A DNA stretch of 64,000 nucleotides, from assembly GCF_963576615.1 (NCBI RefSeq), contig NC_088711.1:38560621-38624620 (forward strand), in the 5' to 3' direction. Positions 7,069-50,560 of the stretch are shown here, in pieces (position 1 is the first letter of the stretch; each line of letters opens with the position of its first letter). The translations under genes were made by a program, and so were the position numbers. This DNA is from Watersipora subatra (Eukaryota; Bryozoa; Gymnolaemata; Cheilostomatida; Watersiporidae). A model generated the notes under the pieces. That model saw only the letters and a program-made list of their open reading frames with translations. It ran no database searches and had not been told where the DNA came from.

Positions 7069-7181
7069 ATGTTTATCTATACGATTGGTTAGAGTTTACA
7101 TGACATGCAAACTGTATAAATTGTATAAATAGCGGCTTATCAGTCTCAGAATTCAGTTCATCTTCAACGACAGAAGTACCT
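7069..7181 (+). promoter_or_regulatory. Promoter and non-coding exon 1 of peptide gene copy 1
   Basis: TATAAAT at 7124-7130 lies 31 nt before the A (7155) of a TCAGTT initiator. Exon 1 is then 27 nt (7155-7181), ending at GTAAGT. Upstream, 7069-7092 carries the module shared by all five copies: TGTTTAT (forkhead core type) followed by GATTGGT. In this copy the module is about 24 nt farther from the TATA box than in the others. Confidence 0.75.
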
Positions 7182-7562
7182 GTAAGTATGTAATTTAATA
7201 TAAAATTGATACCTAATAAGCCCAAGTGCCTAAATATAAAAATTCTATGGTACTATTATACAGTAAGTATATTGTTTTTATTAATTTTCGTCAAAAAATG
7301 ATGTGTATAAGAATACTATTTTCATGTACTACTAGTTACACCAGAATGTTCTTAAATCCATAGTAACTCTCTCACTAACCATATGGCTGAATTCTATTGT
7401 TATTTTGCCTAACAATGGATAGTTATAAATTTTTCAATGTGCTTGAAAGTTATTTTCTAGTTGCTGCTTCATTGATGAAAGTTAATGAAAAAATGTTTGA
7501 CCCAAATATATATTTTTTGCAGACAGCCACTGACAAAACCAATTAATAAAATCTTTGCAAAT

Positions 7563-8258
7563 ATGAAACTGTTGGTGATCCTTGTGGCTCTTTGCCTTGC
7601 TCTCCTCCAGACTGTAGCTGGTTATGGTGGATTTGGGTAAGTTTTTTAACTTTTAGCACACACGCTGACAGGGTTAACAATCTTTTATACTAAAAAACTG
7701 AAGTATGTTTGCTACTCTAATACTTGCTTCTTTCGTCAAATATTTTGTAAAATTTATTTTAGAGGTGGATATGGTGGAGGAAGGGGAGGATATGGAGGAT
7801 ATGGTGGGTACGGACGAGGTTATGGAGGTGGATATGGACGTGGTGGTTATGGTGGATATGGACGAGGGTCTGGAGGATATGGAGGCGGTTATGGCAGAGG
7901 GTTCTGTAAGTATAGATGTACTACATTGCTTTTTAATATTATGGTTAATAAGTTATTATAGTTTGGAAAAGTGCTTAATTAAAAATAAAAAACAAACAGA
8001 GGAGATTACTCTACCTCAGTATACAAAACAAATCAACCATAACATCAACCTAAGACATAAACTGTTTTAACATGAGGTGCCACATTACACAAAATCTTTT
8101 TACCAAAACAATTCAGGACGAAATAGAAAAAAATTATTAGAACTGACTTTTTATTATCTGTGCTTATTGTGTGTCTATTGCCTTAATTTAGTTTTTAATG
8201 TATCGATGTTTTATTAACGCAGTTTAACTAATAAAATGTTTATACTGTTACAGATTAG
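7563..8258 (+). CDS. Secreted Gly/Tyr/Arg-rich peptide, copy 1 (3 coding exons)
   Basis: Coding exons are 7563-7636, 7763-7905 and 8254-8258 (222 nt, 73 aa); introns 2 and 3 are GT-AG and 126 and 348 nt long. Residues 1-20 (MKLLVILVALCLALLQ then TVAG) are a typical signal peptide. The rest is Gly with Tyr and Arg in GYGGYGRG-type units, one Ser and no Cys. The last codon, Tyr, is split across intron 3, so the protein ends GRGFY. Canonical AATAAA at 8398-8403. The start is the only ATG preceding the hydrophobic stretch. Composition resembles nematode nlp-29-type and spider glycine-rich antimicrobial peptides, but also extracellular matrix proteins. Function is inferred from composition only. 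Confidence 0.85.
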
Positions 8259-8420
8259 TCACAGAGGCAATCAAAATTTTCCACAAGCGTCTACCTTCTC
8301 ATGATGCTCGGCTCACTTAGATTTTTGTGATTATTTGTTACAACTTTTTTAGAAGTAGCTGATATAGAGGCGATCAACATTATGTTTTGTTATGGTTAAT
8401 AAATTGTAAGCTATAATATT
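8254..8420 (+). other. Exon 4 / 3'UTR of copy 1
   Basis: It follows a TTACAG acceptor. It supplies the last two bases of the Tyr codon and the TAG stop, then about 160 nt of UTR. Among the five paralogs only this one has a canonical AATAAA at the conserved poly(A) position (8398). Confidence 0.7.
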
Positions 8421-10307: not shown

Positions 10308-10701
10308 CTAGCTGTACAACCCAGCATTGCGTGGGTGATAAAAAGTCTTTGGACAAAAATTTTATTTGTATTTAACATATAACAACATTTGCCATTCTAA
10401 CTTTCAAACTACATATAATAAGAAAAGTGTTTTGTATAATTAAAATAAATTAAAAAAATATATAAAAACAACTGTAAAGGTTTTCAGACTTTGTTTGTTT
10501 GTTTATTTTATCAAAAGGAAAATAGAACAAAAAATTGAAGTAATAAATACATCACAAGGTTGTCAACATAAGAGTGTATTATTAACTTCTAATAATAAAC
10601 AATAAATATAACAACACCAAGGAGGTGATGATGAGGCCTATATGCAATGGCGAGCCGGTCAAGGCAAGGCCCAGTTAGATGACAGCAGAAAAAACAGACT
10701 C

Positions 10702-13640
10702 TCACTCCCGTTCCAGAAGATGAACTCTAAGACTATTTTTAATTTCGGAAATGGTCCTTTGTTTTTTAACATATATAGGTAGTTGGTTCCATAGCACCGT
10801 TTCTTGGCATGTTGTTTTTTGATTAGTGGCAGCGGAGCTAGATGGTGGAATGAGTAAATTTATAAAACTTTGTCTCGTATTCTTTACAGGCACAGTATTT
10901 TGAAGAAAATCTTGAAATGATAGAAAAATGCGAAGCAAAGTACGATATTTATATAGTCGAAAAATGTCAAAAGGTTTTAAGGTTTGGTAAAGCTTTTTAG
11001 TAGGATATAGGAAATGTTTTTTATAAATAATATGAACTAGCCTTTTTTGAAAGAGCAATAAATGATTTAAGTGCACAGCTGGAGCATTTTCTCACACTTC
11101 AACACAGTAAGTCAGTTTTGAGTTTAAATAAGAATTGTAAATCAGTAGTAAAATATATTCAGGAAAACACTGGGAACATCTAAACAATAACCCTGAAGTA
11201 GGACGTAATTTTTGCAAAATAGAACCAATATGGTGTGACCAATTTAAGTGTTTATCTAACGTTATACCTAAAAATTTAATACTATCAGATTTAGAGATAA
11301 TTTTTGAGTTTGTATTAAGGATTTTATCAGTAAGCCTAAATTTATTTTGGGGGTTTCCAAAACAATGTATTGGGTTTTTTCCATGTTAATAGTCAATTTG
11401 TTTGAGGTAGACCAAGTATATAAAATTTGAAGGTCATTGTTTAGATCATTGTAAATTTTATTAAGGCCTTTTGATTCATAAAACAAACTTGTATCACCGG
11501 CATATAATATACAGCGAGAATGTAACAAAAACTTAGGTAGATCAATTATATAAATTAAAAACAATGAAGGACCTAGGACAGAGCCTTGAGGAACTCCATG
11601 AAGTAATGTTTGCGATGACAAAATGCTATTTTGAATCTTAGTTGATTGTCTAACGGTTACTTAGATAACTTTTAAATCATTGACAAGATGTGAGTGTCTT
11701 TAGTGTCAAAACTGAGTTTTTCAAGTTTTGTTGTCAGAATGTTATGATTGATGGTATCAAAAGCCTTTTTGAAATCCACAAAAATTCCTAACACACGCTT
11801 CTCTTTACTAAAGGCTTGTAAAGTCTGATTTTTAAACGTCGCAAGGGCATCAGCTGTAGATAGTTGTTTTTTCAAACCATATTGGTAGGAAGATAAAATT
11901 TTATGATTTTCCAAAAAGCATAGCCATTGGTTGTTCACAAAAGTTTGAAATATTTCATTAAAAATTGTAAGCACTGAAATGGGACGATAATTATCACATA
12001 GATTTACATCACCTTTTTTATATAGTAGAGTTAATATAGCATGTTTTAAATTAAATGGAAAAATACCAGTTTTTAAACTTTAGTTAATAAGAAAACATAA
12101 GGTTGTAACAATAGCTGAACAAGTTTTTTTGACAAAGAAAACCGATATTCCATCTGTACCACAGGATTTTTAACATTGATTTGTATTATTAGTCTTTCTA
12201 TATCATTTACAACCGCATATCTACATGTAAAGGAAGTTGATTCTCCATCATCGTTCAACTTTATGTAAGGTTTGGGATTTTTTGTTAATAATTGACTCCT
12301 ATCCACTTGAGTTGCCAATTTATTTGCTATAGCTGTAAAATGCAAGTTTAACATGTTACCAATGTCTGTATCACAAGGCGGATTATAAATTATTGATGGT
12401 ATTTTGGTTGGGACACGATTTGAGTTTCGTTTAGAAGCATTAAGATTAAAAGTAGGGTTTACCAATTTCCAGATAACACTGGCCGAGCTTGTTTCTAGCA
12501 TTTTTTTAAAGTAGTCTCTTTGCGTTTTTAATCTCTATGTTTACAGATTTTTTCAATCGCTTATGCTTTTTGGAAAGCATAGAATTTAGAGGAGCAAGCT
12601 TACATATTTTAGAAATATTATTCTTTTGTTGAATTTTGAATAACAGTGTCAAACTAATCCAAGGCTTTCGGGTTGTAGCAGACTTGGTAATTTTTATGTG
12701 TTTAGCCAAATATGTGTCTGGTTTAAAAAATACTGTAATAAGACTTAAAAAAATATTGTAATTGTAATAAACATCTTTGCTTTTTTAAAAATTTCATGCT
12801 AACTTATATTTGAAAGCTCAAGAATAATTAATGAATAATCAACATTTTTTCTAGTTACTGTTTTAAAAGCTTGCTGTGATCCGCTGTGTTGAAGTGGAAG
12901 AAAGGCAAAAATAGGTCACTGGTCACTAAGATCGCAAAACCTTGTGCCAGAAATGATACAAGAATTTGAATTAAGGTTGAAAAGCATATGATCAAGACAA
13001 CTACTTTTGTTGAGCTGTAACGTGTAAGTAAATTGATAACATTATAAAAGTTGTAGCAACTGAATAAATTTATGTAGGGTAAACTTACAGCAGTATCCAA
13101 AAGATCAATATTAAAATCATCAACCAAAAGTTGCTGAGAGATTTGCGGACAAAAAGCTAAAAATTCTCAAAAAACACACCAAGATCGGTGGTAGGCGAAC
13201 GGTGAATAATTGAAAGGTTTAGTGGTAGAGAGCCAAAGTGAGCATCCCTTAGATGCAAGTTTCTGCCCTTAACACATTGGTAGGTGTAAGAGTGAAGTTA
13301 ATTCCGTCTCGCACATAGACCCCAACACTATCACCCCCTGAACCTCTGGGGTTACCTACAAAAATATAGTTGCTGACATTAAACATTGAAAGTTTATCAT
13401 CGTATATCCACATTTAAGTAATACAAATTACATCAAAACTATAGTTTGTTGCAGACAAAAATAATCTAAATTCAGAAAATTTATTCTGATGCTACATAAA
13501 TTGAAGCAAATTACAGTGGGGTATTTACATTGAAGATTTTCCAAAACATGACTAAAAGAATCTATTGTATGTGATTTACAGTCAAAACCCGCATCCATAT
13601 AAGTAATCAAAAACACTCAGCAAAAAAATTTAAACAAAAT
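10702..13640 (-). pseudogene. LINE ORF2: endonuclease and reverse transcriptase, broken
   Basis: The endonuclease begins near 13560 with VICFNLCSIR and continues with a VGVYVRDGINF segment near 13310 and DFNIDLL near 13120. RT fragments include VDFKKAFDTINHNIL (about 11780), GVPQGSVLGPSLFLIYI (about 11590) and YAGDTSLF (about 11480), where the family usually has YADD, so a catalytic Asp is replaced. The C-terminal domain (11076-10702) has FQKRLVHIIY and WNQLP, as in CR1/L2-like elements. The region is spread over about seven open pieces separated by frameshifts and stops. Confidence 0.8.
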
Positions 13641-13679
13641 TCAAAAACCCAAGTAGCTAATGACAGTTTATCATCTCCA

Positions 13680-14396
13680 TTATTTATCTGCACAGGTGTG
13701 TCTTCTGGTGTTTTTTACAAAGATTTTCTGGTTAAAATTCAATATAAATTTAAAACCCTGTTGTTGTTTAAACTGACATGCTTTCCAAAACAACATTGAT
13801 TGCTCAGGACTAAGTACATGTACTTCATTAATAAAGATCTTACTCTTCAGTGCAAACCCTAAAGTGTCTATAGTTGTAATGTTTTTTCTGTAAGTTTGAA
13901 AAAACTTTTCACGTTTGTGAGATTGTGTAAATTTTACAACGATTCTGTTTGTTTGCTTAATTCTGTATATGGTGTCATGCCATTGATCAAATTTAGCCAC
14001 GAGAACTTTAAGTTTTTCTTGAGCTTTTTCAGAGCCATAAATAAATCTTCATCTTTTGACGGTGGTATTCCATTTAGCTCTACTGACTTTGCCCTACTTT
14101 GCCCTACTGACTCTGACTCAATGCTCTTTGTAAAGTTTTCATATGCTTGATTATTTACTTCATACTTTTTACATCGTTGGTAACTTTAGCCAAATCTTTC
14201 TTTAGATCATTGACCTCTTCATGTAGAAATTGAAGAAAATTTTCATACTCGCTCTTTTTGGTCTCAAGACTGTTGAGCCTAGCATTTACTTAAATCATTT
14301 GTGATAATACAATTCTAAATTTGCATCAAGTGTTGATAGAGTAACTCCATCTTTTGATTTAGAAGTACTTGCACTACGTGTTTTAGTAAAAGCCAT
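13680..14396 (-). pseudogene. LINE ORF1 (nucleic-acid-binding protein), broken
   Basis: A plausible start MAFTKTRSASTSKS lies at 14396. A short coiled-coil-like stretch rich in Glu/Lys/Leu follows, but the frame is interrupted near 14295. The C-terminal half (14000-13680) is open: IYRIKQTNRIVVKF then ...KIFVKN, the usual end of ORF1 proteins of this LINE group. The start is chosen because it is the first ATG after the 5'UTR. Confidence 0.65.
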
Positions 14397-14553
14397 CCTT
14401 ATGAAATATCTTCAAAGAAAATATTTAGCATGGCTTCACCCAATTTAGGGAGGGCTCACGCATTTACCCTCCCTATGTACTGACAATGCCTGTATATATG
14501 TTGTGTGTACTTGTATTGGTAGCTGTATGAGCAAAGAAAAATTTATTACAGTC

Positions 14554-18628: not shown

Positions 18629-19048
18629 CCCACGAACAAACGAGCGGAGCGAAGTGTGGGAGTTTTTATGATAAATGCATGAGCACACAACTTACGAAAA
18701 TTATTCATCAACAATGAGACGAACCCTCGTCAAAAAATTTCATCAACAAATTTAAGCATCATTTTGTAAAGTCGTTAAAGTACAATAACGATACAAAACA
18801 CATTTAAACCTATTTAAATGTTACCAAGCTTTTGAAGGTTTACTACAAATTCCTAAAACTAACCCATCTGATCGGATTATACACAAATAGACAGATTAAT
18901 TCGGACGAAAATCGCCACAAAACGCTTGAAAAGCTTGGTTTAATAAAAGTTAAGACCGGAAATTGAAACGCCGAGCGACAGATAATAGAACGATAAAGTC
19001 TTGCGCATTTCACGAAAAAATAACGTGCACTTTTCACCAGTCTATAGC

Positions 19049-21972: not shown

Positions 21973-22064
21973 ATGTTTATGCACATGATTGATGAGTTTT
22001 TACATGTATAAAAAGAGTGTCAACAGCCTCAGAGTTCAGTTCATCTTCAACAACTGAAGAATCT
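21973..22064 (+). promoter_or_regulatory. Promoter and non-coding exon 1 of peptide gene copy 2
   Basis: TATAAAAA at 22007 lies 31 nt before A 22038 of TCAGTT. Exon 1 is 22038-22064 (27 nt), then GTAAGT. Module at 21973-21996: TGTTTAT (forkhead-type) and TGATTGAT (fits the PBX/Hox consensus TGATNNAT). Confidence 0.8.
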
Positions 22065-22909
22065 GTAAGTACAAAGTTTAATAATCAAGCAGTACTCACT
22101 ATAAAATATGAGTATAAGATACCTATTATATGAGATACTTACTATAAGATATGTCATATCTTACTTAAAGATATGACTCTTACATCGCAATTATAAATGC
22201 ATTGTTCTTGTGGATTCTGTTCAACACTAAAACTGTGTTTAGAGTTGATAAATGAGATAGCATTACATACTGCTTAGAGTTTGCTTTGTTTGCTTGCTTA
22301 TTTCAACATTTTTCTATTGTTAACCAATTCCAATTTTTTTGATGTGTGAGATGATCGGATAAGATGACTTAAAATTAAAATTGACAAAATTTTATTGTGA
22401 ATGAAAAAATCAATAAAGGAATGAATGTGAAACTACATTATTAGCTGCTGTCATTGCCATAGTTGATAGTTTATAGTTGATATTGGCTATTGTGTTCAAG
22501 TTAAAGCATTAGGAGTCTCTATTCTCTAGATCTTTTTGCAACTATAGGATTCATAATCCCACTATTGCTTAATCCAAGCATTTTAACCACAATGAGGTTT
22601 TGTCGATTTCAATCTTAAAACATCCTGGCAGTCAGATCACCTCAAACATCAACAACAATCGGAGATGATAGAAAGCGCCTAAACTTTCTGATAAATCTAC
22701 AAAAATATTGTCTAAAAACATTTTCAAGTAGTCAAGAGATTTACTGACTGACAATATCAAAATATTTTTAACTCTATTCGAACTTTTCTTGAATCATGTG
22801 AATTCATGATTATTTTTATTGATGGAAAATAGTAAACAATTCACTAGAGAATATAGACTATATCTTTTGTAGACTTACTGTCAAACTAGTCAAAGAAATA
22901 TTTGCAAAG

Positions 22910-23251
22910 ATGAAGATCTTGGTAATCCTTATGACTCTCTGTCTTGCTCTCCTGCAACTTACAGTTGGATACGGTGGCTTTGGGTAAGTTTTTTAGCAGA
23001 TCCACCACGCATAAAATGACAAAAGGAATATAAATACTTCATACTGTTGAAATGATATAAGGACATCAGATCATGTCAGATATCAAGCATGGTTTTAAAT
23101 TCAATGTAGGGGTGGATATGGTAGAGGATTTGGTAGAGGATATGGTAGAGGATATGGAGGATATGGTAGAGGATTTGGCAGAGGATATGGTAGAGGATAC
23201 GGAGGCTACGGAAGATACGGAAGAGGTGGATTTGGAGGTTTCAGAGGCTAA
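22910..23251 (+). CDS. Secreted Gly/Tyr/Arg-rich peptide, copy 2 (2 coding exons)
   Basis: Coding exons are 22910-22983 and 23110-23251 (216 nt, 71 aa), with a 126-nt GT-AG intron. The signal peptide is residues 1-20, starting MKILVILMTLCLALLQ. The mature part is arrays of GRGFGRGYGRGYGGYG and ends GRGGFGGFRG. The TAA lies inside exon 3, unlike copies 1 and 5. Exon 3 runs on to 23277. The sequence after the stop is homologous to the old C-terminus of copies 3 and 4 but 2 nt shorter, so it is out of frame here. Intron 1 is 808 nt. Role as for copy 1: secreted, extracellular, function inferred from composition. Confidence 0.85.
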
Positions 23252-23619
23252 CATATTTGGGATTATCAGCGGCTTTTGTAAGTATAAATACGCTGTAGTT
23301 TTTATGTTACAATAATAATTGGTGAACTTCATACTGATACAAGTGTCTTATCACAATACTATCAAAACATTAAGGATTCAAGTTGTCTCAACTTATAGCA
23401 ACAACAAAATTAATGTATACATACAAATATTTGATGATTAACCATGTACAACAGCAAGCCAAAAAATCTTTTTTAGCCTTTGTTCTACTATACCAGCTTC
23501 GAAGTAAATGTGAAAAAATTAAATTTTTTTATTTATTATTATTTTATTGTTACCTTGGTTTGGTTTAGCTTTAGCTTTGATATCCACAGTAATACCTGTA
23601 ATTACTCTTATTATTGCAG

Positions 23620-23780
23620 ACTAGACAGACAATGACAAAAATCTACTCAAACATCGACGTTCTTCTGAAGCTCATCCAAGAGTAGCTGACTGCCTGTTGC
23701 TGACTTTTTAGAAGTAGAGTTCAAACATGCCAACCATATTATGTTTTATTATGGTCAATGAAACATAACTGTGATATTTT
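23620..23780 (+). other. Exon 4 (3'UTR) of copy 2
   Basis: It follows TTATTGCAG and is wholly untranslated here. It shares the ACTAGACA start and a CTCATCCAAGAGTAGCTGACTG stretch with the other copies. The conserved poly(A) position has AATGAA (23757); AATAAA occurs at 23876. Confidence 0.6.
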
Positions 23781-24354
23781 AGAAATTATTTTGTGAGGTT
23801 TTGGTTATTTTAAATATAGTTCTTCTCGACAAAAGCCGCATTTGTTTTATGTCTATCAATAGACCAAGTACAGAAATAAAAGTCTGACAGTTTGGATCAT
23901 CTATTAATATGAAATTCTGCTACAATGAAAATTATTGACCATTGTAGATCATTATAGATTATTGTGACTTGAAAGTTTAATCATCACTAAACTGTAAAGT
24001 CACATTGATCTACTTTTTGAGGTTTTTACAAAGTGGCTGCACAGTCAACTTGAATACAAATTAATTTTTTTAGCAGAAAATTATAACTTGTAGTTGATTT
24101 TTTTGGAAACTAAGGAGTACCAAAAGCATGTTTAAGCCACACGACTGCATTTTTATAGAAAGTGGTTAATCTGCTTCCCTCAAATTGGATTTCTATTTTG
24201 CTTTAATCAAAATGAATTTTTGTTGTTTGTAAGTTCTGTTTCTTACTTAAAATTACAGCTGTTGTAAAGTTTAATTTAATCAAGTTAGACATGAGATAAA
24301 AAGTTAGAATAGATGGCTCTTCAGTGATACTTAAAAATAAAAATTGTAAATAAA

Positions 24355-24440
24355 CCATCATGTAAGTTTTATATAAATTATCATGTAAAGTTTATATAAA
24401 TTATCATGCAACTCTTATATAAGATATCATCCACATTTTA
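24355..24440. repeat. Short tandem repeat, about 22 bp unit
   Basis: Diverged copies of ATCATGTAAAGTTTATATAA-like text. The same repeat, expanded, lies at 33720-33920 and 46060-46210 in units 3 and 4. Confidence 0.7.
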
Positions 24441-24568
24441 TTCTTCTGTCAGGAATAAAAAGTTCAGCCAAGCTTAAATATGGAATAACGACATTCAAAT
24501 ATGACGGATTGGTTGGTTAGTTTACTTTATTAAAACTTTTGTAGTTTTTCAAATATATTTAATGATGT

Positions 24569-24573
<5 letters not shown>

Positions 24574-24641: not shown

Positions 24642-24645
<4 letters not shown>

Positions 24646-31332: not shown

Positions 31333-31424
31333 ATGTTTATGCACATGATTGATGAGTGTTTACATGTATAAAAAGGGTGTCAACAGCCTCAGAGTTCAGT
31401 TCATCTTCAACAATCAAAGAATCC
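31333..31424 (+). promoter_or_regulatory. Promoter and non-coding exon 1 of peptide gene copy 3
   Basis: TATAAAAA at 31367 lies 31 nt before A 31398 of TCAGTT. Exon 1 is 31398-31424 (27 nt), then GTAAGT. Module at 31333-31356 with TGTTTAT and TGATTGAT. Confidence 0.8.
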
Positions 31425-32229
31425 GTAAGTACACAGTTTAATAATCAAGCAGTACTCACTATACTCAAGTGCTTAAAGATATGGCTCTTAAATCGCAATT
31501 ATAAATGCTTCGTTCTTGCGGATTCTCTTCAGCACTAAAACTGTGTTTAGAGTTGATAATTGAGATAGCCTAACATGATGCTTGAAGTTTGCTTGGTATT
31601 CTTGCTTATTTCAGCATTTTTCTATCGTTTGCCAAATTGAATTTTTTTGATGTGTGCGATGATCGAACCAGAAGTCTTAAAATTAAAATTGACAACATTT
31701 TTTACGGAACGGAAGAAAAAGTCCATAAAAATGAATGTGAAATTACATCACTAGCTGCTCTAATTGCCATAGTTGATAGTTTATAGTTGAAATTTGGCTA
31801 TTGTGTTCAAGTTTAAGCATTAAGCGTCTCTAATCTCTAGACCTCTTTGCAACTATAGGATTCATAATCACAATACTGCATAATCTGAATGTTTAACAAC
31901 AATCAGGCTTTGTCGATTCTAATCTTAAAACCTCGGGGCAGTCAGATCACCTCAAACATCAACAACAATTAAAAATAATAGAAAGCGCCTAAACTTTATG
32001 ATAAATCTACAAAAAACTTGTCTAAAACATTGTTAAGTGGACAAGAATTTTACTGACTGACAATATCAAAATATTTCTAACTCTATATGAGCTTTTCTTG
32101 AGTCATGTGACTGACTGCCTTTCACAATTATTTTGATTGATGGATAATAGTAAACAATTTACTGGAGAATATAGACTATATCTATTGTAGACTCTCACTG
32201 TGAAACTAGTCAAACAAATATCATCAAAG

Positions 32230-32555
32230 ATGAAGTTTTTGGTAATCCTCATGATTCTCTGTCTTGCTCTCCTGCAACTTACTGTTGGATACGGTGGTTT
32301 CGGGTAAGTCTTTGTTAGCACTTCTATCACACATGAAGTGACAAAGTTAATAAGAATACATTTTGCTATTGGAATGATGTCAGAACATAGGATCATGCCA
32401 GATTTCAAGCATGATTTTAAATTAAATGTAGGGGTGGATATGGTAGAGGATATGGTAGAGGATATGGAGGATATGGTAGAGGATATGGAGGATACGGAGG
32501 ATATGGAGGCTACGGAAGATATGGAAGAGGTGGATTTGGAGGTTTCAGAGGTTAA
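32230..32555 (+). CDS. Secreted Gly/Tyr/Arg-rich peptide, copy 3 (2 coding exons)
   Basis: Coding exons are 32230-32303 and 32432-32555 (198 nt, 65 aa, the shortest copy), with a 128-nt intron. The signal peptide starts MKFLVILMILCLALLQ. The mature part is GRGYGRGYGGYGRGYGGYGG-type units and ends GRGGFGGFRG. The TAA is inside exon 3 (exon ends 32583). After the stop, the same frame runs nine more codons and, spliced to exon 4, would end SGFY then TAG, like copy 1's GFY, so the early stop looks derived. Intron 1 is 766 nt and intron 3 is 340 nt. Confidence 0.85.
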
Positions 32556-32923
32556 CATATTTGGGATTATATCAGCGGCTTTTGTAAGTATAAATACGCT
32601 GCAGTTTTTATGTTACAATAACAATTGGGAAACTTTATACTGATGAAAGTGTCTCATCACAAAACTATTAAAACAATAAGAATTTTAGTTGTTTCAAATT
32701 ACAACAGCCAAATTTATGTGTGCATACAAACAGTTGATGATTAACCACCTATAACAACAAACTACAAAAAGTCTTTTTAGCCATTGTTTCACTATACCAG
32801 CTTTACAGTAAATGTAAAAAAATTTAATTTGTCTATTCATTATCATTTTATTGTTACCTCGGTTTGGCTTAGCTTTAGCCTCAATATTCACAGTATTACC
32901 TGTAATTACTCTTACTATTACAG

Positions 32924-33085
32924 ACTAGACATACGACGACAAAAGTTCTTCTCTAACGCCTACCTTATTCTGGAGCTCATCCAAGAGTAGCAAACTGCCT
33001 TTTGTTGACTCTTTAGAAGTAAAGTTCGTATAGGCCAGCATTATTATGTTTTATTATGATCAGTAAAACATAACTGTGATATTTT
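32924..33085 (+). other. Exon 4 (3'UTR) of copy 3
   Basis: It follows TATTACAG and starts ACTAGACATAC. The poly(A) site position carries AGTAAA (33062); AATAAA occurs at 33183. Confidence 0.6.
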
Positions 33086-33719
33086 TGAATTTATTTTGTG
33101 AGGTTTATGGTTATTTCAAATATAATTCTTTGGAACCAAAAAACTGCATTTGTTTTATGTCTATATATAAACCAAGTTTGGAAATAAAAGTCTGACAGTC
33201 CAAATCACAAATTAGTATAAAATTCTGCTACAATAAAAGTAAATCATCATTGCAGTGTAAACACACAATGAACTATTTTTTGTGACTTTTACGAAGCAGC
33301 TGCACAGTCAACTTGAATACAATTTCTTTTATTTAGCGGAATATTATAACTTGTAGCTAATTTTTTTGAAAACTAGGAAATACCAAAAGCATCTTTAAGC
33401 CACACAGCTGCATTTTTGTAGAAAGTGCTGAACCTGCCTTGCTGAAATTTGATGTTTTTTTTGCTTCAAATTTCAAAATGAAATTTTTTTGTCTGTGAGT
33501 TTTATTGCTTATTTAAAATTACAGCTTTTGTAGAATTTAATTTAATCGAGTTAATTAGAAGATAAAAAAGTTACAATATATGGCTCTTCACTGATACTTA
33601 AAAATAACAAAGACAACTACCTGTAATAATAATTTCAGCAACAAATTTTACAAGAGATACAACAATTAAGTATGTTATTGCAGATAATTGTAAGTTTATA
33701 GTCAAGTGTATTGTAAATA

Positions 33720-33920
33720 AACCATCATGTAAATTTTATATAAACTATCATTATATTTAATATTAACTATTATGTAAAGTTTATATAAATTATTACAAAA
33801 TTTTTGTGTAAATTATCATGAAAATCTTATAATAACTATCATATGAGCTTTATATAAATTATCATGTGAAGTTTATATAAATTATCATGCAACCCTTATA
33901 TAAAATATCATTTACATTTT
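33720..33920. repeat. Tandem repeat, about 22 bp unit
   Basis: Diverged ATCATGTAAAGTTTATATAA-like units, more copies than in unit 2. Confidence 0.7.
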
Positions 33921-34911
33921 ATACTTATGTCAGTAAAAAAAATCAGTCAAGCTTAAATATGGAATAAAGACATTTAAACATGACGGCTCCAATAGTTAGT
34001 TAATTTCACTTTTTTAAACTTTGGCATTTTTCAAAATATCTTTAATGAGGTTATATACAACTCAAAATGTGTTTTTGGTGCCTAGTTAAAACTGTTATGG
34101 TTATAATATTTGTTAAAACATATTGTTACTTACGTGTATGCTATGCATCAATATTTTAATAAAATGTTTATAGCTCAGGAATTCACATAAAAATGCTCCA
34201 TAACGAAGTTTCACACTCTTTTTTAAAGAGTTCATATAATTTATAATCCTTTTTGCTGTGATATAAATACCTTCAATAATCTAAACCAAAAAGGAACTCA
34301 AGTTGTGCAGAGCAGATTGACCTTGTTAAATGTTGGCTGAACCACAAGATTTGGCTGAGAAATGATGTCTTTTGCCTAAATGTATATTCATCAAATTATA
34401 CATGCTGCAATCTAGCTATTGTTTACTTCATGTTACAATGTAAATGGACACTTAATTATTAGTTCATTGTTTCGAAAATAATGTAGGTATGACATTAAAA
34501 AATGTTGCGTGATGTTATTTATTTCTGATACTTTCTCCGATAGAAAAATGAAGTTAAGAACTACTGCTACATTATTGATGTGAGCTCATTTCATTTTGGA
34601 AATGTTATTCACTCATTGGCATTCCCACACTCTACCGCCAGTCAGTGACCTATCACTAGTTCATTGTGACTTCAAACACTTATTGAGAAAATAAGTTTGA
34701 GAAGTGCATGTAGAAAGAAATTTACAATAGAGATATGATTATCAATGTAATGCAGATTTTTCATTAACCATTGTTGTGTTTAATTTATATAAGGCGTGTC
34801 ACTTTTGAATTCTGATCAGTTTCAGATCAATAATTGTTCAAATGATCAAGCAAAGCGACAGAACAAAGCTTTTGTTCAAGATAGATCCCAATTTCCTATT
34901 TATGCCCAGTA

Positions 34912-38582: not shown

Positions 38583-39894
38583 TCTATATATACATCTCAG
38601 AGTTTGCGGTCTGCACAGTTACGCCAATAAAGTTTTAAGAGCTTCGTTTTAAGCTCTGTACTAGATTTGAACTCAGGAAGATTGCAACCACATGTTTGCA
38701 AACACGCACCAACCATAAGGCTCTAAATATTCTTAGCTATTTTATCTACAGCAGCGTTTTCACTAAATGGGGATGCGTGTTGTGTTATTGAGTAATATTA
38801 TCTTTTGCATTGTTTTTATTTTTTTAATTTTTCAAAGTCTTTTCAGAATTCATTACCTACATGTATTTCTCTGGTTTGTAATTTTCAAATGTGACGTTTC
38901 AATTTCAAATGTTCTACTGCCACTTCTACTTTCTGGCTCTCCCTCATGGCAATCGCTAAGAACTACCAAATTTAAAGCTTTTACATCTCAATTGCATCTA
39001 CATTCTCTCATCTACATTCTCTCATCTACATTCTCTCATCTACATTCTCTCATCTACATTCTCTCATCTACATTCTCTCATCTACATTCTCTCATCTACA
39101 TTCTCTCATCTACATTCTCTCATCTACATTCTCTCATCTACATTCTCTCATCTACATTCTCTCATCTACATTCTCTCATCTACATTCTCTCATCTACATT
39201 CTCTCATCTACATTCTCTCATCTACATTCTCTCATCTACATTCTCTCATCTACATCTACATTCTCTCATCTACATTCTCTCATCTACATTCTCTCATCTA
39301 CATTCTCTCATCTACATTCTCTCATCTACATTCTCTCATCTACATTCTCTCATCTACATTCTCTCATCTACATTCTCTCATCTACATCTACATTCTCTCA
39401 TCTACATTCTCTCATCTACATTCTGTCGCTGTTGAATCAGACAAAACATCCGACAAAAGGATTTCGATGTTTCATTTTAATATTTTTATCGAGAGGTACT
39501 GGTGTCGTTGTTTAAAGGTTTGATGGATAGTTTTGGTTACCACAGTAAATTTTTTACACACACTTGTATCTAATCGTTGTTATTATTACTTGAAAATAAT
39601 CATAATTTTTATTTTGTCTTTTTTAGCTCATAACAATTGTATCATGTCAAATAATTTTTTGTAGTAATCATTGTAATAAAACAGACTATTTAGCTATTAC
39701 TTGCTAATTATTTCACATTTAAACACCTTTACGTTTGTTTTATTTTTCTCTTAACTTATTTGAACTGCAAAAAACACTTTTCTCATGATATGAAGTTTAA
39801 AAGTTATAATCGTAAATGTTTTTTATGTTAAATAAAAACCAACATTCTATCCAACAACTTTTTACTACCCGGGCAACGCCCAGCATTATCATAG
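38583..39894 (+). mobile_element. Helitron-like element with an internal minisatellite
   Basis: It starts TCTATATATACATCTC after an A (38582). It ends with a GGGCAACGCCC hairpin (39871-39881) and CATAG before T, a worn CTAG end. The interior is homologous to 62381-62935 (shared AATGTGACGTTTCAATTTCA). A tRNA-like minus-strand segment lies at 38662-38724. Units 2 and 3 keep only its first part. No coding capacity. Confidence 0.5.
38996..39424 (+). repeat. 14-bp minisatellite, about 30 copies
   Basis: Nearly perfect CTACATTCTCTCAT units, with two extra 6-bp CTACAT steps. Because 14 is not a multiple of 3, every frame stays open and gives a 14-residue protein repeat; the resulting 222-residue frame is not a gene. 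The related copy at 62.4-62.9 kb lacks the array. Confidence 0.95.
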
Positions 39895-43688: not shown

Positions 43689-43780
43689 ATGTTTATGCAC
43701 ATGATTGATGAGTGTTTACATGTATAAAAAGAGTGACAACAGCCTTAGAGATCAGTTCATCTTCAACAACCAAAGAATCT
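43689..43780 (+). promoter_or_regulatory. Promoter and non-coding exon 1 of peptide gene copy 4
   Basis: TATAAAAA at 43723 lies 31 nt before A 43754 of TCAGTT. Exon 1 is 43754-43780 (27 nt), then GTAAGT. Module at 43689-43712 with TGTTTAT and TGATTGAT. Confidence 0.8.
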
Positions 43781-44319
43781 GTAAGTAAGTCTAATAATCA
43801 AGCATTATGCTCAAGTGCTAAAAGATATGACTGCTACAGTAATATTATAAGTTAATTGTTCTCATTGATTCTCTTTAATACTGCAAAAGCATTTAGATTT
43901 CAAAATGAACTAACATAACATGCTGCACTGGATTTGCCTAAAAGAAAAGAACTAGCACATTTCTACTTCATTGGTCAAGATACTCACTGACTAATAGTAT
44001 CAAATCTTTTTAAAATATATTTCAGCTTTTCTGATAGCCATTTGACCGACATTCATAAAAGTTTTGATCAAAGGAAACTGATAAAAAATTTACTTGTGTT
44101 TATATACATCTTTTGTAGAGTCTTACTGTCAAACCAGTCATTTTACTGGCTAACAATATCAAAGTATTCTTAAATCTATTTGAGTTTTTCATTAAAGCAT
44201 GTGGCTGTTTTTCGTGGTTATTTTGATTGATGGATAATAGCAGATAATTTACTGGAGAATATAGACTATATCTATTGTAGACTCTCACTGTGAAACTAGT
44301 CAAACAATTGTCATCGAAT

Positions 44320-44657
44320 ATGAAGTTTTTGGTAATCCTTATGATTCTCTGTCTTGCTCTCCTGCAACTTACCGTTGGATACGGTGGTTTCGGGTAAGTT
44401 TGTGTTAATACTTCTATCATAGATGAAGTGACAAAGTTAATAAGAATCCATTATGTCATTGGAATGATGTTAAAACATAGGATCGTACCTAATTTCTAAC
44501 ATGTTTTTAAATTCAATGTAGGGGTGGATATGGTAGAGGATTTGGTAGAGGTTATGGAGGATATGGTAGAGGATATGGTAGAGGATATGGAGGATATGGA
44601 GGATATGGAGGCTATGGAAGATACGGAAGAGGTGGATTTGGAGGTTTCAGAGGCTAA
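44320..44657 (+). CDS. Secreted Gly/Tyr/Arg-rich peptide, copy 4 (2 coding exons)
   Basis: Coding exons are 44320-44393 and 44522-44657 (210 nt, 69 aa), with a 128-nt intron. The exon 2 protein is identical to copy 3. The mature part is GRGFGRGYGGYGRG-type units and ends GRGGFGGFRG. The TAA is in exon 3 (exon ends 44685). The frame after the stop stays open through nine codons and across the exon 3/exon 4 splice, ending SGFY. Intron 1 (500 nt) is shorter than in copies 2 and 3, and intron 3 is 335 nt. Secretion is supported by the signal peptide; function is not shown. Confidence 0.85.
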
Positions 44658-45020
44658 CCTATTCGGGTTTATGTCAGCGGCTTTTGTAAGTATAAATATG
44701 CTGCAGTTCTTATGTTACAATAATAATTGAGAAAGTTTATACTGATAAAAATGTCTTATCACAAAACTATAAAAACAATAAGAATTCCAGTTGTTTTAGC
44801 AACAATTAAGTTTATGTGAACATATAAACAGTGGATGGTTAATTACGTATAACAGCAAACTAAAAAATTCGTTTTAGCCATTGTTCTACTATATCAGTTT
44901 CAAAGTAAATGTAAACAAATTAAAATTTTCTATTTATTTTCATTTTATTGTTACCTCGGCTTGGCTTAGCTTTAGCCTTAATATTCACAGTATTACCTGT
45001 AATTACTCTTATTATTGCAG

Positions 45021-45180
45021 ACTAGACATACTACGACAAAAGTTCTTCTCAAACACCTTTCTTCTTCTGAAGCTCATCCAAGAGTAGCTGACTGCCTGTT
45101 GCTCACTCTTTAAAAGTAGAGTTCAAATAGGCCAACCATATTATGTTTTATTATGGGCAATGAAGCATAACTGTGATATA
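45021..45180 (+). other. Exon 4 (3'UTR) of copy 4
   Basis: It follows TTATTGCAG and starts ACTAGACATAC. The conserved poly(A) position has AATGAA (45159). Confidence 0.6.
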
Positions 45181-45189
45181 TTAAAAATT

Positions 45190-48100
45190 ATTTAGTGAGG
45201 TTTTAGTTATTTTAAATATAATTTTTCCTAACAAAAAACTTCATTTGTTTTATGTCTCATCCATAAATAAACCAAGTCCATAAATAGAAACCTGACAGCA
45301 TAAGTGAAATATGGTATTAAGCAAAATAGTTAGCAGTACATTTTGAGTGTAAACACTTGAGTTTAATAATTACAACAACTAACAAATAGCTTTCAACCTG
45401 GGTACGTAAAAACCAGCTACAAATTTCAACTGCAGGTTTTTCCTAAATTAGCTTATCAGTTATTTACTATTCTGATCAGAAGCAGCTACCAATGAACCCG
45501 TGTATTCTACTAGTGTACTTTATAAACATGTGCCAAGTAATGCACTTTTTTTACTAATCAGTTTGAATCACCTTTTAATATAAAATGTTGCTATAATGAA
45601 AGCTATCCATTATTAAAATTTAAAATCACAATGAAGTATTTCTTTTACAAAACAGCCAGCTGCACACTCAATTTAAATACAAATTAAATATTCTTTTAGC
45701 TGAATTGTATAAATGTAGTTGATTTATTAATAACTAGTAAATGCCAAAAGCAAGTTTAAGCCATTCAGCTGTGTTTTTAAGAAGAGTGATGAACCTTACG
45801 TGCTGAATTTTGGTGTTTATTTTGTTTCACTCAAAATGATATTTTTGCAAATTTTATTTTTTCTACATTCACAGCCTTTGTAGAATTTGACTCAATTAAG
45901 TTAATTATGAGATAAAAAGTTAAGACACCAATGCTTTAAAATAAAAAAACCACTATGTTATACTAATAACTTTAGCAACAATTTTTACAACAGATATTTA
46001 AAACAATTGAATATGTTATCACATATGCTCTATGTTCATAGTCAAGTGTACTGTAAATGAACTATAATGTAAACTTTGTATAAAATATCATTATATTTTA
46101 TATAAGCTATCTTTAAAGTTACATAATCAGTCATGTAAAATTTATGTAAACAGTTTTGTAAATTTTATATAACTTATCATGTGAACCTTATATAAACTAT
46201 CATGCACATTTAATACTCCTGTCAATAGAAAAAAAATTTAGTCTAACTTAAATATGGCGCAAGGACATCCAAACTTGGCAACTTAATTGGTTAATTAATT
46301 CACCCTTTTATTGAAACTCTTGTAGCTTTTCAAATGTCTTTGATGACGTTATATATAAGTCAAAGATATTTTTTGTAACTTTGTAAAAAAATTTTATAGC
46401 TATATTATTTGGTGAGGAACATCATTGCCTACAAGTATGCGTCAATATTTTGATAAAAATGTTTATAGCTCAGGAAATCACATGAAATGTGCTTCATAAT
46501 GATGTTTCACATTACTTTTTAAAGAGTTCATATAACACATGTATATGAACTCAAAACAACAGTTTTAGTTCATCGCGAGACCTTCTTTACTAAATCTTGC
46601 ATAACCTGGGCATATATAACCCAATTTAAAAAAATTAAAATGCATTAAAATCCTCGGAAATTGCTGATTTTAAATCTTTAAATAACTCAAAAATGTTGTT
46701 TTAGCACGGGTGTACATTTTGACTGCCTGGTCACATACTTTATAATTGGTTTAGCTATGATATAAATACCTTCAAAAATCTAAACCAATTGGCAATTCAG
46801 GAAATGCACATCAAATTGACCTTGTTAAAAGTTAGCTGAACCACCCCGCCATGATTCCGATGAGAAACGATGCATTCTGACTTGATGTATATTCATCAAA
46901 TTATACATGCTGAAATCTAGCTATTGTTTACTTCACGTTACAATGTAATTGATCACTTATTTTCTATCTCATTATTTCATACAAAATGTAGTTGTAACAC
47001 TAAAAAGTGTCGCATAATGTTATTTTTCTCTGATACTTTCTTCGTCCAAAAAATGAAGTCAAGAACCACTATTACATTAATCACATGAGCTCTTTTCATT
47101 TCAGAAATTTTATTCATTTATTGGCATTCTCACACTACTGCCAGTCATTGAGTTATTATCAATTCATGGTTACTTCAACGACATTAACAGGTTGTCGGTA
47201 ATAAATAGCGATTATCGTGATCTGTTTAATATCAGTAATTTGTTGAAGCGTCAATCAGTCAATCATGTGCCAAAAGCTGAGACCCTTTATATAAAATATT
47301 TGGCCTTCAGTTTTTTTATTGTGCAATTTAAAATAGTGCTTAAATTTTGAGACTATCTCACTTCCTAGCAACAATATAGAGTTTTTGTATCCGCAAGCAT
47401 GTTAACCTGGAAGTTTTTAACGTCTGGCTGCATAGCGCAATTACGTTTGGTTGTAAAAAAGTGATATTTTTAGCCAGTATAGATAAAATATCTCTAGTTT
47501 AAAATAGCAAATATACAAAAATATTACAAAACATGTATTGAGAAGGACAGTTTAAGAAGGCATGCAAAAACAACTTATTCTAGAAGTATGGTTGCCAATG
47601 TAATTAAAATTCTTTATTAACTAATTTCATACTTCACTTATATAACGTGTGTGACTTTTAATTCTGATCAGTTTCAAATCAATAATTGTTCAAAAGGTCA
47701 AAGAAGAATACCAAAACAAAACCTTGGTTCAAAATAGATCCCAATCTCCTACTTATGTCCAGTAGTGGCTCAACTGGATCCACTCGTATTTCATCATTTG
47801 TCCCTGGATTAATTAAAAGTTCTGAGCCATTTTATAAGAGTTTTCTAGAACGCTTACACTTTGGTCTAAAGCCCTACTTTGATATATCATATCTGAAAAA
47901 AGTGTGAAAAATTGATGTATTAATTCATCGACATTGTATATTACCATACAATATTTACACCTAGCCTCAAGTTCACTTAGAGATTTCAGTTGCTTTAAAA
48001 ATCCTGGTCATATTTCAATCCAACTATTCAAAACGAGTGCCGCATTCATCTTTGAAATGAATTAAAGTTTTGTTTGCTTAAAGCCTTTGAACTGTGGTGT

Positions 48101-48350
48101 TGCTATTTTTGTGATCTATATTAGTATAGCAATACGAGTGAATGTGTCAAGGCAGCCAAAAATCTTTCTGTATTCCTTTTTATTCCAAGTTATAAATAGC
48201 TTCAAATTTATTTTTACATTCAGGAGTTTTCCATGAAACAAGCAACAATAATATTGGGATTTAATCTATTCATGAACTCTCACATCCTAATACAGGAATC
48301 GTATTTAGTTGGTAATTTTATTTTATGATTGGAGCCAGTGTTATACCAAA
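45190..48350. other. Unit 4 tail, no gene seen
   Basis: Homologous to the unit 2 and unit 3 tails. It contains the 22-bp repeat (46060-46210) and a private insert at 46532-46735 between TTCATATAA and TTATAATTGG. No frame is kept. Confidence 0.5.
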
Positions 48351-48561
48351 ATAATAAAAAAATTGTTTGAAATGCTTTGATCTGTATTACTCATCATTTT
48401 TGTTAATATGCATAGTCATGCCAACTCATATGTATACTCAGCCAAACAAATTCTTTCATATCTTACTATGCCAAGTTATAAATAATTTCAAATCTATTTT
48501 AAATTCATTAATTCTTTGATTGATCATTTCAAAGACTTTGAAAGACTTTGATCATGAACTC

Positions 48562-48653
48562 ATGTTTATCCATATGATTAATGAGAGGTTATTTGTATAA
48601 ATAGAGTGGCATCAGTCTCTGAGTTCAGTTCAACTTCAACAGCAGAAATATTT
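48562..48653 (+). promoter_or_regulatory. Promoter and non-coding exon 1 of peptide gene copy 5
   Basis: TATAAATA at 48596 lies 31 nt before A 48627 of TCAGTT. Exon 1 is 48627-48653 (27 nt), then GTAAGT. Module at 48562-48585 with TGTTTAT and TGATTAAT. Confidence 0.8.
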
Positions 48654-49117
48654 GTAAGTACCTTCTTTAATATACAAAGGGTTCTCAGTAGAATCAGCTG
48701 CTTGTATATATAATATATCAGAGTGCCACTATCAATATACTGCTCTTGCTATTTTTTGCTACACAAAAATTGTAGGTAAACTTTGCAAAAAAGATAGTAT
48801 AACATAAATTTTCTTCTGAATTTGTTTAGGAAAACAGCATTGATGATTTTTTGAATAAATATTTAAGGCTTTTAGTCCCATTAAATTAGGAATTTCTTGC
48901 ACCTAGAAGCATTTTATTATTGAAATATTAGTCTAAGACTGTTCATAAATTCATCTTCTTAGGTCTTTACAGGTTTTTTATGTTGTCTTCAATCTAGTAG
49001 TGGGTTAGAGATTTTTTGGGGTAACTAGATTTATTGCTACACTATCAAAATATTATTTAATGATTAAATATCTTTATATTTTAGAACATCTTGTCAACAA
49101 CTAAAAAAATTGCTAAT

Positions 49118-50392
49118 ATGAAGGTCTTGGTAATACTTATGGCTCTTTGCCTTGCTCTCCTCCAGACTGCAGCTGGTTATGGTTTTGGGTAAGTTTATTC
49201 ACTTCTTTTTTATTTGGTGAAAGGCTGAATAATTTTCTATATCACTAAGATGGCACTAGTCCATAAGTCGAATATTTTTCTGAATTTTTATATTTTTTAA
49301 ATAATGTATTTTAGAGGTGGATATGGTAGAGGATATGGTGGATATGGTAGAGGATATGGTGGATATGGTGGATACGGGCGAGGTTATGGTGGATATGGAC
49401 GAGGATATGGTGGATATGGAAGAGGATATGGTGGATATGGACGTGGTTATGGTGGATATGGAAGATATTGTAAGTAAAAAGTTTTTTTTCATCCAAACAA
49501 TGATTATTAAATTATTTTACTTTTAAAAGTTAGATGTGAACGATATTTGAGATTTGGTTTTAAATACTTATAATTTTATTATATTGGTTTATATATATAT
49601 ATTGGTTTTAAATACTTATAATTTTATTATATTGGTTTATATATATATTGGTTTTAAATACTTATAATTTTATTATATTGGTTTATATATATATTGGTTT
49701 TAAATACTTATAATTTTATTATATTGGTTTATATATATATATTGGTTTTAAATACTTATAATTTTATTATATTGGTTTATATATATATATTGGTTTTAAA
49801 TACTTATAATTTTATTATATTGGTTTATATATATATATTGGTTTTAAATACTTATAATGAAACATGTAGGGATCCATGTATAGAACAAACAGATGACTCT
49901 TCGTTTAAATATTGATGAACATGTTGTATCTACTCAAAAGAGTTAAATGAATAAATGTGTGTTAAATTATAATATTTTTATAATTCAAAACAAATAATAT
50001 ATAATAATTTTAATATATAATTTTTGTTACGTTTTTTTGCAGAATTTTTGTTACTAAAAACTTATTGCAATAACTAGACAAATAGACACTCACATGTGTA
50101 TATAAAGATTGGTACATAAAAGTGATTTTAAGCTGAGGTATTAATGCATCTAAATATGTTAAAAGTGACAAAAATTAAGGATATTATCTCTTAAACAAAT
50201 TAAATGTGTTTAAGATGTAAGAATACATTTAAACACATGCATTATAACAAGCTAGCGTACAATAGATGATATTACATAAAATTAGCTATTTGTTCTCAGT
50301 ATTGCAGTTTGCTATCATTTTAGCTTCACTTGAGCACTAAGTCAGTGAGAAATGATGCTAACCATAACTATATACATTTTGTTACAGACTAG
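49118..50392 (+). CDS. Secreted Gly/Tyr/Arg-rich peptide, copy 5 (3 coding exons)
   Basis: Coding exons are 49118-49188, 49315-49469 and 50388-50392 (231 nt, 76 aa, the longest). The signal peptide starts MKVLVILMALCLALLQ and ends TAAG. The mature part is the most regular: tandem GYGGYGRG blocks ending GRYY, with the final Tyr split over intron 3 and TAG in exon 4, as in copy 1. One Gly codon of the YGGFG start is missing (YGFG). Intron 2 is 126 nt; intron 3 is 918 nt because it holds a tandem repeat. It is closest to copy 1 by its TxAG signal end and late stop. Likely an extracellular antimicrobial-type or matrix peptide; not provable here. Confidence 0.85.
49556..49860 (+). repeat. ~46-49-bp tandem repeat in intron 3 of copy 5
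   Basis: About six and a half near-identical units, each GGTTTTAAATACTTATAA followed by TTTTATTATATTGG and a short TA run; period differences come from the TA run. The other four genes lack it. The 73-residue frame at 49694 is an artefact. Confidence 0.95.
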
Positions 50393-50560
50393 ACATACAG
50401 ATAATAAACTTGCTCCACAAGTGTCCACTTGCTCGTGATGATAGTCTCACTGGAGAGTTGCTGACTGCTTGCTGTTGAGCTTGATAAGTTAATGCTATTT
50501 TGCTGTATCTGGTTTTATTGTGGTTAATGAAGCATAAACGACAATATTTCATAACATATT
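50388..50560 (+). other. Exon 4 / 3'UTR of copy 5
   Basis: It follows TTGTTACAG, supplies the end of the Tyr codon and TAG, then UTR. AATGAA at 50526 lies at the conserved poly(A) position. Confidence 0.6.

What the first reader, a model, noticed from the sequence alone, without database searches (positions are those of the whole stretch)
7069..50560. Five-member tandem family of secreted Gly/Tyr/Arg peptides with fixed gene architecture
Seen: five same-strand genes, each with a 27-nt non-coding exon 1, a signal-peptide exon ending in a split Gly codon, a GYG/GRG-repeat exon and a small exon 4. Intron 2 is 126-128 nt in every copy. Proteins are 73, 71, 65, 69 and 76 aa; length varies by whole codons within the GYG/GRG array, as slippage would give. 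Known: nematode nlp-29-cluster peptides and some arthropod glycine-rich antimicrobial peptides have this design and also lie in tandem clusters. Inference: an immune or epithelial secreted peptide cluster reached independently, or a matrix protein set.
Basis: partly seen in the sequence, partly recalled or inferred. Interest (0 to 1): 0.8.

Follow-up and report, generated by a model that had tools for sequence, protein, structure and literature searches.

The report
Large cluster of secreted glycine-rich peptides
The five small genes are real and belong to a cluster of some 36 related genes on one animal chromosome that make secreted, probably disordered glycine/aromatic/arginine peptides, most likely a surface coating or gel and possibly also a defence.

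Summary
Five same-strand genes share a TATA box at -31, a TCAGTT initiator, a predicted 27-nt non-coding exon 1, a signal-peptide exon, a Gly/Tyr/Arg exon, a 126- or 128-nt intron 2 and proteins of 73, 71, 65, 69 and 76 aa. One detail is off: in genes 2-4 the stop lies in exon 3, so exon 4 is untranslated. "Five" is a large undercount: 30 signal exons were read and 6 more are known only as pattern matches, on both strands, all on the same chromosome. Three look damaged. Repeat words vary (GGYGRGY, GGGFGRGF, GGGI/GGGL). Arrays are under purifying selection: third-position differences exceed positions 1 and 2, with no out-of-phase column in 70 gene pairs. The mature chain of gene 5 closely matches C. 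elegans antimicrobial peptide NLP-31 (43 of 48 columns), but low-complexity likeness cannot show common descent. Best reading: secreted, disordered peptides that self-assemble by cation-pi contacts into an extracellular coat, as in shematrin-like clusters; an antimicrobial role is the main rival. Organism and expression data are missing.

The parts
7124..7132 (+). TATA box of gene 1 (TATAAATAG), -31 from the initiator A
7155..7181 (+). gene 1 exon 1, 27 nt, non-coding, starts at A of TCAGTT
7523..7636 (+). gene 1 exon 2 (ATG 7563): signal peptide, ends in GG of split Gly codon; 5' end placed by eye at the AG
7763..7905 (+). gene 1 exon 3: GYG/GRG array
8254..8420 (+). gene 1 exon 4: last 2 nt of Tyr codon, TAG, 3' UTR (end approximate)
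22007..22015 (+). TATA box of gene 2
22038..22064 (+). gene 2 exon 1, 27 nt
22873..22983 (+). gene 2 exon 2 (ATG 22910): signal peptide; 5' end by eye
23110..23277 (+). gene 2 exon 3: array, stop TAA inside exon 3, then untranslated tail with a 2-nt deletion relative to gene 3
23620..23780 (+). gene 2 exon 4: 3' UTR (end approximate)
31367..31375 (+). TATA box of gene 3
31398..31424 (+). gene 3 exon 1, 27 nt
32191..32303 (+). gene 3 exon 2 (ATG 32230): signal peptide; 5' end by eye
32432..32583 (+). gene 3 exon 3: array, stop TAA inside exon 3; the frame beyond the stop reads HIWDYISGFY*
32924..33080 (+). gene 3 exon 4: 3' UTR (end approximate)
43723..43731 (+). TATA box of gene 4
43754..43780 (+). 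gene 4 exon 1, 27 nt
44281..44393 (+). gene 4 exon 2 (ATG 44320): signal peptide; 5' end by eye
44522..44685 (+). gene 4 exon 3: array, stop TAA inside exon 3
45021..45180 (+). gene 4 exon 4: 3' UTR (end approximate)
48596..48604 (+). TATA box of gene 5
48627..48653 (+). gene 5 exon 1, 27 nt
49085..49188 (+). gene 5 exon 2 (ATG 49118): signal peptide; 5' end by eye
49315..49469 (+). gene 5 exon 3: GGYGRGY array
50388..50560 (+). gene 5 exon 4: last 2 nt of Tyr codon, TAG, 3' UTR (end approximate)

Best explanation
A two-strand cluster of some 36 signal exons encoding small secreted, mostly cationic Gly/aromatic/Arg peptides. In the main cluster a conserved core promoter (ATGATTAATGAG near -53, TATA at -31, TCAGTT initiator, 27-nt leader exon) probably drives strong, coordinated transcription in one epithelial or gland cell type; the signal peptide sends the chain out; the mature chain is intrinsically disordered, and its regularly spaced Tyr or Phe and Arg residues on Gly spacers self-associate by cation-pi and pi-pi contacts into an extracellular coat, gel or fibre matrix, possibly hardened by Tyr crosslinking. 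Shown here by computation: gene models, conservation, cluster extent, purifying selection on the arrays. Inferred from signal-peptide form: secretion. Inferred from composition, one low-confidence AlphaFold run and the tick GRP precedent: disorder and condensation. Inferred only by analogy: tissue and coating role.
For: Family and architecture. Purifying selection: pN/pS 0.13 in 11 Y-type arrays and 0.21 in 6 F-type arrays; differences at codon positions 1/2/3 of 0.149/0.080/0.327 (Y, 55 pairs) and 0.140/0.048/0.299 (F, 15 pairs), 0 out-of-phase columns. Composition of 18 modelled mature chains: 53-69% Gly, net charge +5 to +10 (the single Cys in f5 comes from a mis-set donor, corrected). Disorder: mean pLDDT 43.8 for the gene-5 array, one sequence in the alignment. 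Mechanism precedent: tick-GRP77 phase separation driven by Arg and aromatic residues (PMC11794139, passages). Cluster precedent: Hydractinia shematrin-like/prisilkin-like clusters, expressed in stolon cells, 7 of 9 with a predicted signal peptide (PMC11876637, passages). Tyr crosslinks are reported in nematode epicuticle (PMC9612446, passages). Modelled members range from 65 to 212 aa with different repeat words, easier to reconcile with a material than with a target-specific peptide.
Against: No transcript, tissue, proteomic or biochemical data. The mature chains resemble the antimicrobial NLP-31 beyond composition. AMP genes also form clusters. The shematrin repeat rule XGnX (X = I, L, V, Y) fits the Y type and the long G-I/L member but gives 0 matches in 6 of 6 F-type models. 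No Pfam match for the 3 window peptides given (only Keratin_2_head at E 0.48). No chitin, tyrosinase or carbonic anhydrase gene among the ORFs scanned, which were a part of those listed. The most diverged members (38474513, 38484442, 38496269, 38672758) carry Glu, Asp, Ser and Gln and were not in the composition or selection counts.
Confidence: 0.5

Rival explanations
1. An epidermal or haemocyte antimicrobial peptide cluster working like the C. elegans nlp-29 cluster: infection or wounding induces the genes, and cationic Gly/Tyr/Arg peptides are secreted and act on microbes.
For: Gene 5 mature chain vs NLP-31: 43 of 48 aligned columns identical, z 7.7 against residue shuffles; the other 10 Y-type chains z 4.6-7.6. 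One paper, listing NLP-31, was the only hit for 12 exact family words in two full-text searches. Y-type chains are small and cationic (pI 9.5-10.7), clustered and duplicated.
Against: Pujol 2008 reports adaptive change on four branches in the nlp-29 cluster (section read), whereas here arrays and signals show purifying selection overall (no branch test was run). Modelled members reach 212 aa; F-type z is only 3.3-4.7 and the long member z 0.2 against NLP-31.
Confidence: 0.27
2. Both at once: a barrier coat whose cationic peptides also hold back microbes, so the matrix/immune split is false.
For: Composition suits both mechanisms; the tick GRP and NLP-31 lie near the same sequence space.
Against: No direct evidence; needs both activities to be shown.
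Confidence: 0.15
3. A dead or selfish repeat family without protein function that was spread by duplication.
For: The stretch carries transposon remains (RVT_1, a Mutator-like match), and 3 of 29 members look damaged.
Against: Frame and amino acids are kept while third positions diverge about as introns do; promoter and 27-nt leader are conserved.
Confidence: 0.03

Closest known systems
C. elegans nlp-29 cluster (nlp-27 to nlp-31, nlp-34), especially NLP-31
   Same: Small Gly/Tyr/Arg peptides in a tandem cluster; mature repeat GGYGRGY nearly identical.
   Different: Much larger (some 36 signal exons over about 1.9 Mb against 6 genes in a 12-kb cluster), F and I/L repeat types, purifying rather than reported adaptive change. 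Signal peptides, introns and orthology to nlp genes were not compared.
Hydractinia shematrin-like / prisilkin-like clusters (PMC11876637, passages)
   Same: Tandem cluster of Gly-repeat genes, most with a signal peptide; Y-type and long members fit XGnX.
   Different: F-type members give no XGnX match with X = I, L, V, Y; no expression data here; no Hydractinia sequence was compared.
Molluscan shematrins (Pinctada; PMC4660305, passages)
   Same: Gly/Tyr-rich framework proteins (Shematrin-1 is listed there as GY-rich); 14 of 18 modelled chains here end in Tyr.
   Different: No basic RKKKY-like end (that motif is recalled; no call supplied it); no evidence of a calcified tissue; no shematrin sequence was compared.
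Tick saliva glycine-rich proteins (tick-GRP77, PMC11794139, passages)
   Same: Secreted disordered Gly-rich chain with spaced Arg and aromatic residues.
   Different: Tick-GRP77 is about 26% Gly with Ala, Pro and Glu; the 18 modelled chains are 53-69% Gly and nearly free of acidic residues.

Membership tests
nlp-29 / NLP antimicrobial peptides | Signal peptide followed by short Gly/Tyr-rich chain | tested here: met
   signal peptide judged by form, no SignalP run
nlp-29 / NLP antimicrobial peptides | Tandem genomic cluster of duplicates | tested here: met
nlp-29 / NLP antimicrobial peptides | Adaptive change among cluster members (reported in PMC2453101, section 7 read) | tested here: inconclusive
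   Overall pN/pS below 1 in every group and position-3 excess; no branch test was run
nlp-29 / NLP antimicrobial peptides | Nematode origin and orthology | not tested
   Organism searches (PF00115, PF00379, PF01484) did not complete
nlp-29 / NLP antimicrobial peptides | Epidermal expression induced by fungal infection or wounding; antimicrobial effect | not testable with these tools
   no expression data
shematrin-like clusters | XGnX repeats, X = I, L, V, Y, n = 1-4 (definition from PMC11876637, passages) | tested here: inconclusive
   3-11 matches in each of 11 Y-type models and 20 in the long member (whole proteins counted), 0 in 6 of 6 F-type models
shematrin-like clusters | Signal peptide plus tandem gene cluster | tested here: met
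   signal peptides judged by form and conservation, no SignalP run
shematrin-like clusters | Expression in matrix-secreting cells | not testable with these tools
   no expression data

The most novel reading that the evidence does not exclude
A modular material-gene system: in the main cluster one conserved cassette (ATGATTAATGAG, TATA, TCAGTT, 27-nt leader exon, signal exon, usually a terminal split Tyr codon) drives interchangeable repeat words (GGYGRGY, GGGFGRGF, GGGI/GGGL, GGSRGFGGG, and a Ser/Gln/Arg-rich form), so that the animal tunes a secreted condensate by copy number and by swapping Tyr, Phe and aliphatic stickers under one regulatory switch.
Probability: 0.25. Interest if true: 0.65.

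Novelty: new variant of a known kind. Interest (0 to 1): 0.5.

Why it matters
Low-complexity secreted proteins are hard to compare by similarity search, as the Hydractinia authors report for shematrin-like genes (passages). Here the leader and signal exons give a handle that picks out the cluster from a 784 Mb genome: 22 of 25 leader hits and 32 of 32 signal hits fall in it or in its satellite cluster on the same chromosome. It also exposes natural Tyr, Phe and aliphatic variants of one sticker-and-spacer chain. That makes sequence rules of extracellular condensates, and the question whether such sets are armour, defence or both, directly testable.

Tried and rejected
Pfam scan of 3 of the 5 window peptides: only Keratin_2_head at E 0.48. 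PDB sequence search with gene 5: two hits, best E 0.062, TAF15 (TATA-binding protein-associated factor 2N), not taken as homology. Rfam scan of the window at gathering thresholds: nothing. No tRNA. Pfam scan of 83 and 67 window ORFs, a selection from the 406 listed, plus 7, and of 82 of 205 flanking ORFs: RVT_1 (E 9.2e-12) is the only strong match; the rest are weak single hits (VP_N-CPKC 0.0018 and PCAF_N 0.01; Pentapeptide 1.2e-5, Pentapeptide_4, Mutator, DEAD, P2RX7_C and ComA between 8.5e-5 and 0.00095; none). No host gene that explains the cluster was seen. Readthrough of the exon-3 stop in genes 2-4: considered because the frame in genes 3 and 4 stays open beyond the stop for 10 codons to the same split Tyr and TAG, rejected because gene 2 has lost 2 nt there. 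Collembolan-type Gly-X-X polyproline helices: rejected by inspection, since Gly falls in 7- and 8-residue words and not at every third residue. My first whole-genome pattern (0 hits) was badly designed: it encoded GYGYGRG, a word the family does not use. The organism: not identified; contig C239 was read in part in the hope of mtDNA and did not look like it. Full-text searches for 12 exact family words found one paper and none.

Limits: the substitution tests used 17 of 18 models (the long member dropped), that is 17 of the 29 members; those left out include the damaged and most diverged ones. Model f5 went into with its mis-set exon-3 end, a few codons too long. The signal queries include members themselves, so its bit scores are partly self-matches; diverged members scored 28.9-32.7 bits at best against other members, still above the shuffled maximum. 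Leader calls allow 4 mismatches in 17 nt and have no shuffle control, nor has the -53 motif. Promoters were found by a pattern spanning -14 to +13, so conservation there is partly built in; TATA, the -53 motif and the rest of exon 1 are outside it. Six signal exons are known only as pattern hits: five of the six near 40.3 Mb and 39030895; the reversed control of that search had 1 hit.
Full report
The observation. Gene models built from splice signals give ATGs at 7563, 22910, 32230, 44320 and 49118, intron 2 of 126, 126, 128, 128 and 126 nt, and proteins of 73, 71, 65, 69 and 76 aa. In all five the TATA box lies at -31 from the A of a TCAGTT initiator, and exon 1 from that A to the first GTAAGT donor is 27 nt (allowing for a one-base print offset). 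One correction: genes 1 and 5 end with a Tyr codon split across intron 3 followed by TAG, while genes 2, 3 and 4 stop at TAA inside exon 3, so that exon 4 is untranslated there. In genes 3 and 4 the frame after that TAA stays open for ten codons to the same split Tyr and TAG; in gene 2 a 2-nt deletion breaks it. The simplest reading is a shared, derived earlier stop with a decaying relic behind it.

Beyond chance. Gene 1's signal exon alone finds the other four at E 2.5e-9 to 8.8e-9 in the window; 320 shuffled signal peptides gave no hit above 23.5 bits in 302.7 kb. Genes 2-4 sit in duplicated units of roughly 9-12 kb whose larger matching blocks are about 70-86% identical and which include flanking sequence and a 23-bp satellite.

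The family is much larger. The window is C4:38560621-38624620 of a 783.7-Mb genome. The leader pattern with up to 3 mismatches has 25 hits in that genome, 22 in C4:38.509-39.019 Mb on both strands and 3 elsewhere (C2 twice, C10 once), with 0 hits for the reversed control. The one outside hit that was read (L025) has no family signal exon behind it. The signal-exon pattern has 32 hits, all on C4: 26 in 38.496-39.031 Mb and 6 in 40.323-40.375 Mb; the reversed control has 1 forward and 0 reverse. In the 302,697 bases read as ten blocks, 29 signal-exon members were found, 26 with a leader match at up to 4 mismatches; 25 of the 26 pattern hits in 38.496-39.031 Mb are among them. With one member of the second cluster read and six further pattern hits not read, that makes some 36 signal exons. 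Three read members look damaged or incomplete: 38474513 and 38727439 have stops between two pieces of array, which for 38474513 could also be an intron, and 38810411 shows no start codon in the aligned stretch.

Repeat words differ. Y type: GGYGRGY (the window's five, six minus-strand neighbours and 38537399). F type: GGGFGRGF (C4:38.68-38.82 Mb). Long members: 212 aa of GGGI/GGGL at 38656149, and a GGSRGFGGG type at 38672758. Ser/Gln/Arg-rich relatives lie at 38474513, 38484442 and 38496269. The member read in the second cluster begins MKFLVILVALCLALHQTTATFYGGRGFG and goes on with a less regular Gly/Tyr/Phe/Arg/Asn chain, again ending in a Tyr codon split over intron 3; its leader is different, and the leader pattern has no hit near 40.3 Mb. 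Of 18 full models, 14 end in Tyr. A tree from non-array sequence gives full local support to the minus-strand Y genes, to genes 2-4 and to five minus-strand F genes as groups; the order between groups, and the place of genes 1, 5 and the long member, is weaker. A motif ATGATTAATGAG near -53 is found at up to 3 mismatches in 18 of 19 aligned promoters, gene 1 being the exception. Information content is highest at the initiator, but these promoters were found by a pattern spanning -14 to +13, so only the conservation of TATA, the -53 motif and the rest of exon 1 is independent.

Selection. With protein-guided alignments, pN/pS is 0.30 for the signal exon and 0.13 for the arrays of 11 Y-type genes, 0.28 and 0.21 for 6 F-type genes, and 0.36 and 0.32 for all 17 together; synonymous divergence is of the same order as intron divergence. 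Because protein alignment favours low pN, I repeated the count on pairwise nucleotide alignments: codon positions 1/2/3 differ at 0.149/0.080/0.327 (Y, 55 pairs), 0.033/0.018/0.227 (the minus-strand Y subset, 15 of those 55 pairs) and 0.140/0.048/0.299 (F, 15 pairs), with no out-of-phase column. These are functional proteins under purifying selection.

What the chains are. In the 18 models the mature chains are 53-69% Gly; Y-type chains have 18-30% Tyr, F-type 20-23% Phe; Arg is 5-18%; net charge +5 to +10; no cysteine once the f5 donor is corrected. The diverged members, not in this count, also hold acidic residues. AlphaFold without an alignment gives mean pLDDT 43.8 for the gene-5 array, which fits disorder but is weak evidence. 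Cleavage site and secretion are inferred; SignalP was not available.

Mechanism. Tick-GRP77, a secreted disordered Gly-rich protein, phase-separates through spaced Arg and aromatic residues (PMC11794139, passages). The present chains are a denser version of that grammar. Hydractinia carries clusters of Gly-repeat genes, most with signal peptides, called shematrin-like and prisilkin-like and expressed in stolon cells (PMC11876637, passages). On these grounds I favour a coat, gel or fibre matrix. Against it stands the close match to NLP-31, quoted in PMC9658076 (table passage): 43 of 48 columns for gene 5, z 7.7 over residue shuffles. The nlp-29 cluster enhances resistance to fungus when over-expressed and shows adaptive change on some branches (PMC2453101, sections 7 and 11 read). 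The adaptive pattern is not what is seen here, but the test differs. Low-complexity likeness cannot decide between descent and convergence.

What is missing. The organism is unknown; searches meant to place it did not complete. The verdict between matrix and immunity therefore rests on analogy.

Noticed in passing
window 10700-14400, - strand: Decayed LINE-like element; reverse transcriptase domain RVT_1 E 9.2e-12 at 11268-11660.
   Followed up: partly
window 49554-49858: 48-bp tandem repeat, 6.4 copies, 98% alike, inside intron 3 of gene 5; explains part of its 918-nt length.
   Followed up: no
window 38995-39424: 14-bp minisatellite CATCTACATTCTCT, about 30 copies, open in all three + strand frames.
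   Followed up: no
window 24341-24441, 33710-33923, 46115-46204: 23-bp AT-rich satellite downstream of genes 2, 3 and 4, marking the duplicated unit.
   Followed up: partly
window 52635-52823: 50-bp palindromic-looking tandem repeat (CAACGTCCCAGCAACGTTGTGGGAAATACG...).
   Followed up: no
L019/L020, C4:38795618 and 38795751: Two complete leader promoters 133 bp apart in front of one F-type gene.
   Followed up: no
C4:40323356-40375167: Second cluster of six signal-exon pattern hits about 1.3 Mb away; one member read, with a different leader.
   Followed up: partly
L043 (contig C239) 5902-6954, - strand: Open frame that looks like an alpha-1,3-fucosyltransferase; the name is recalled, not from a search.
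   Followed up: no
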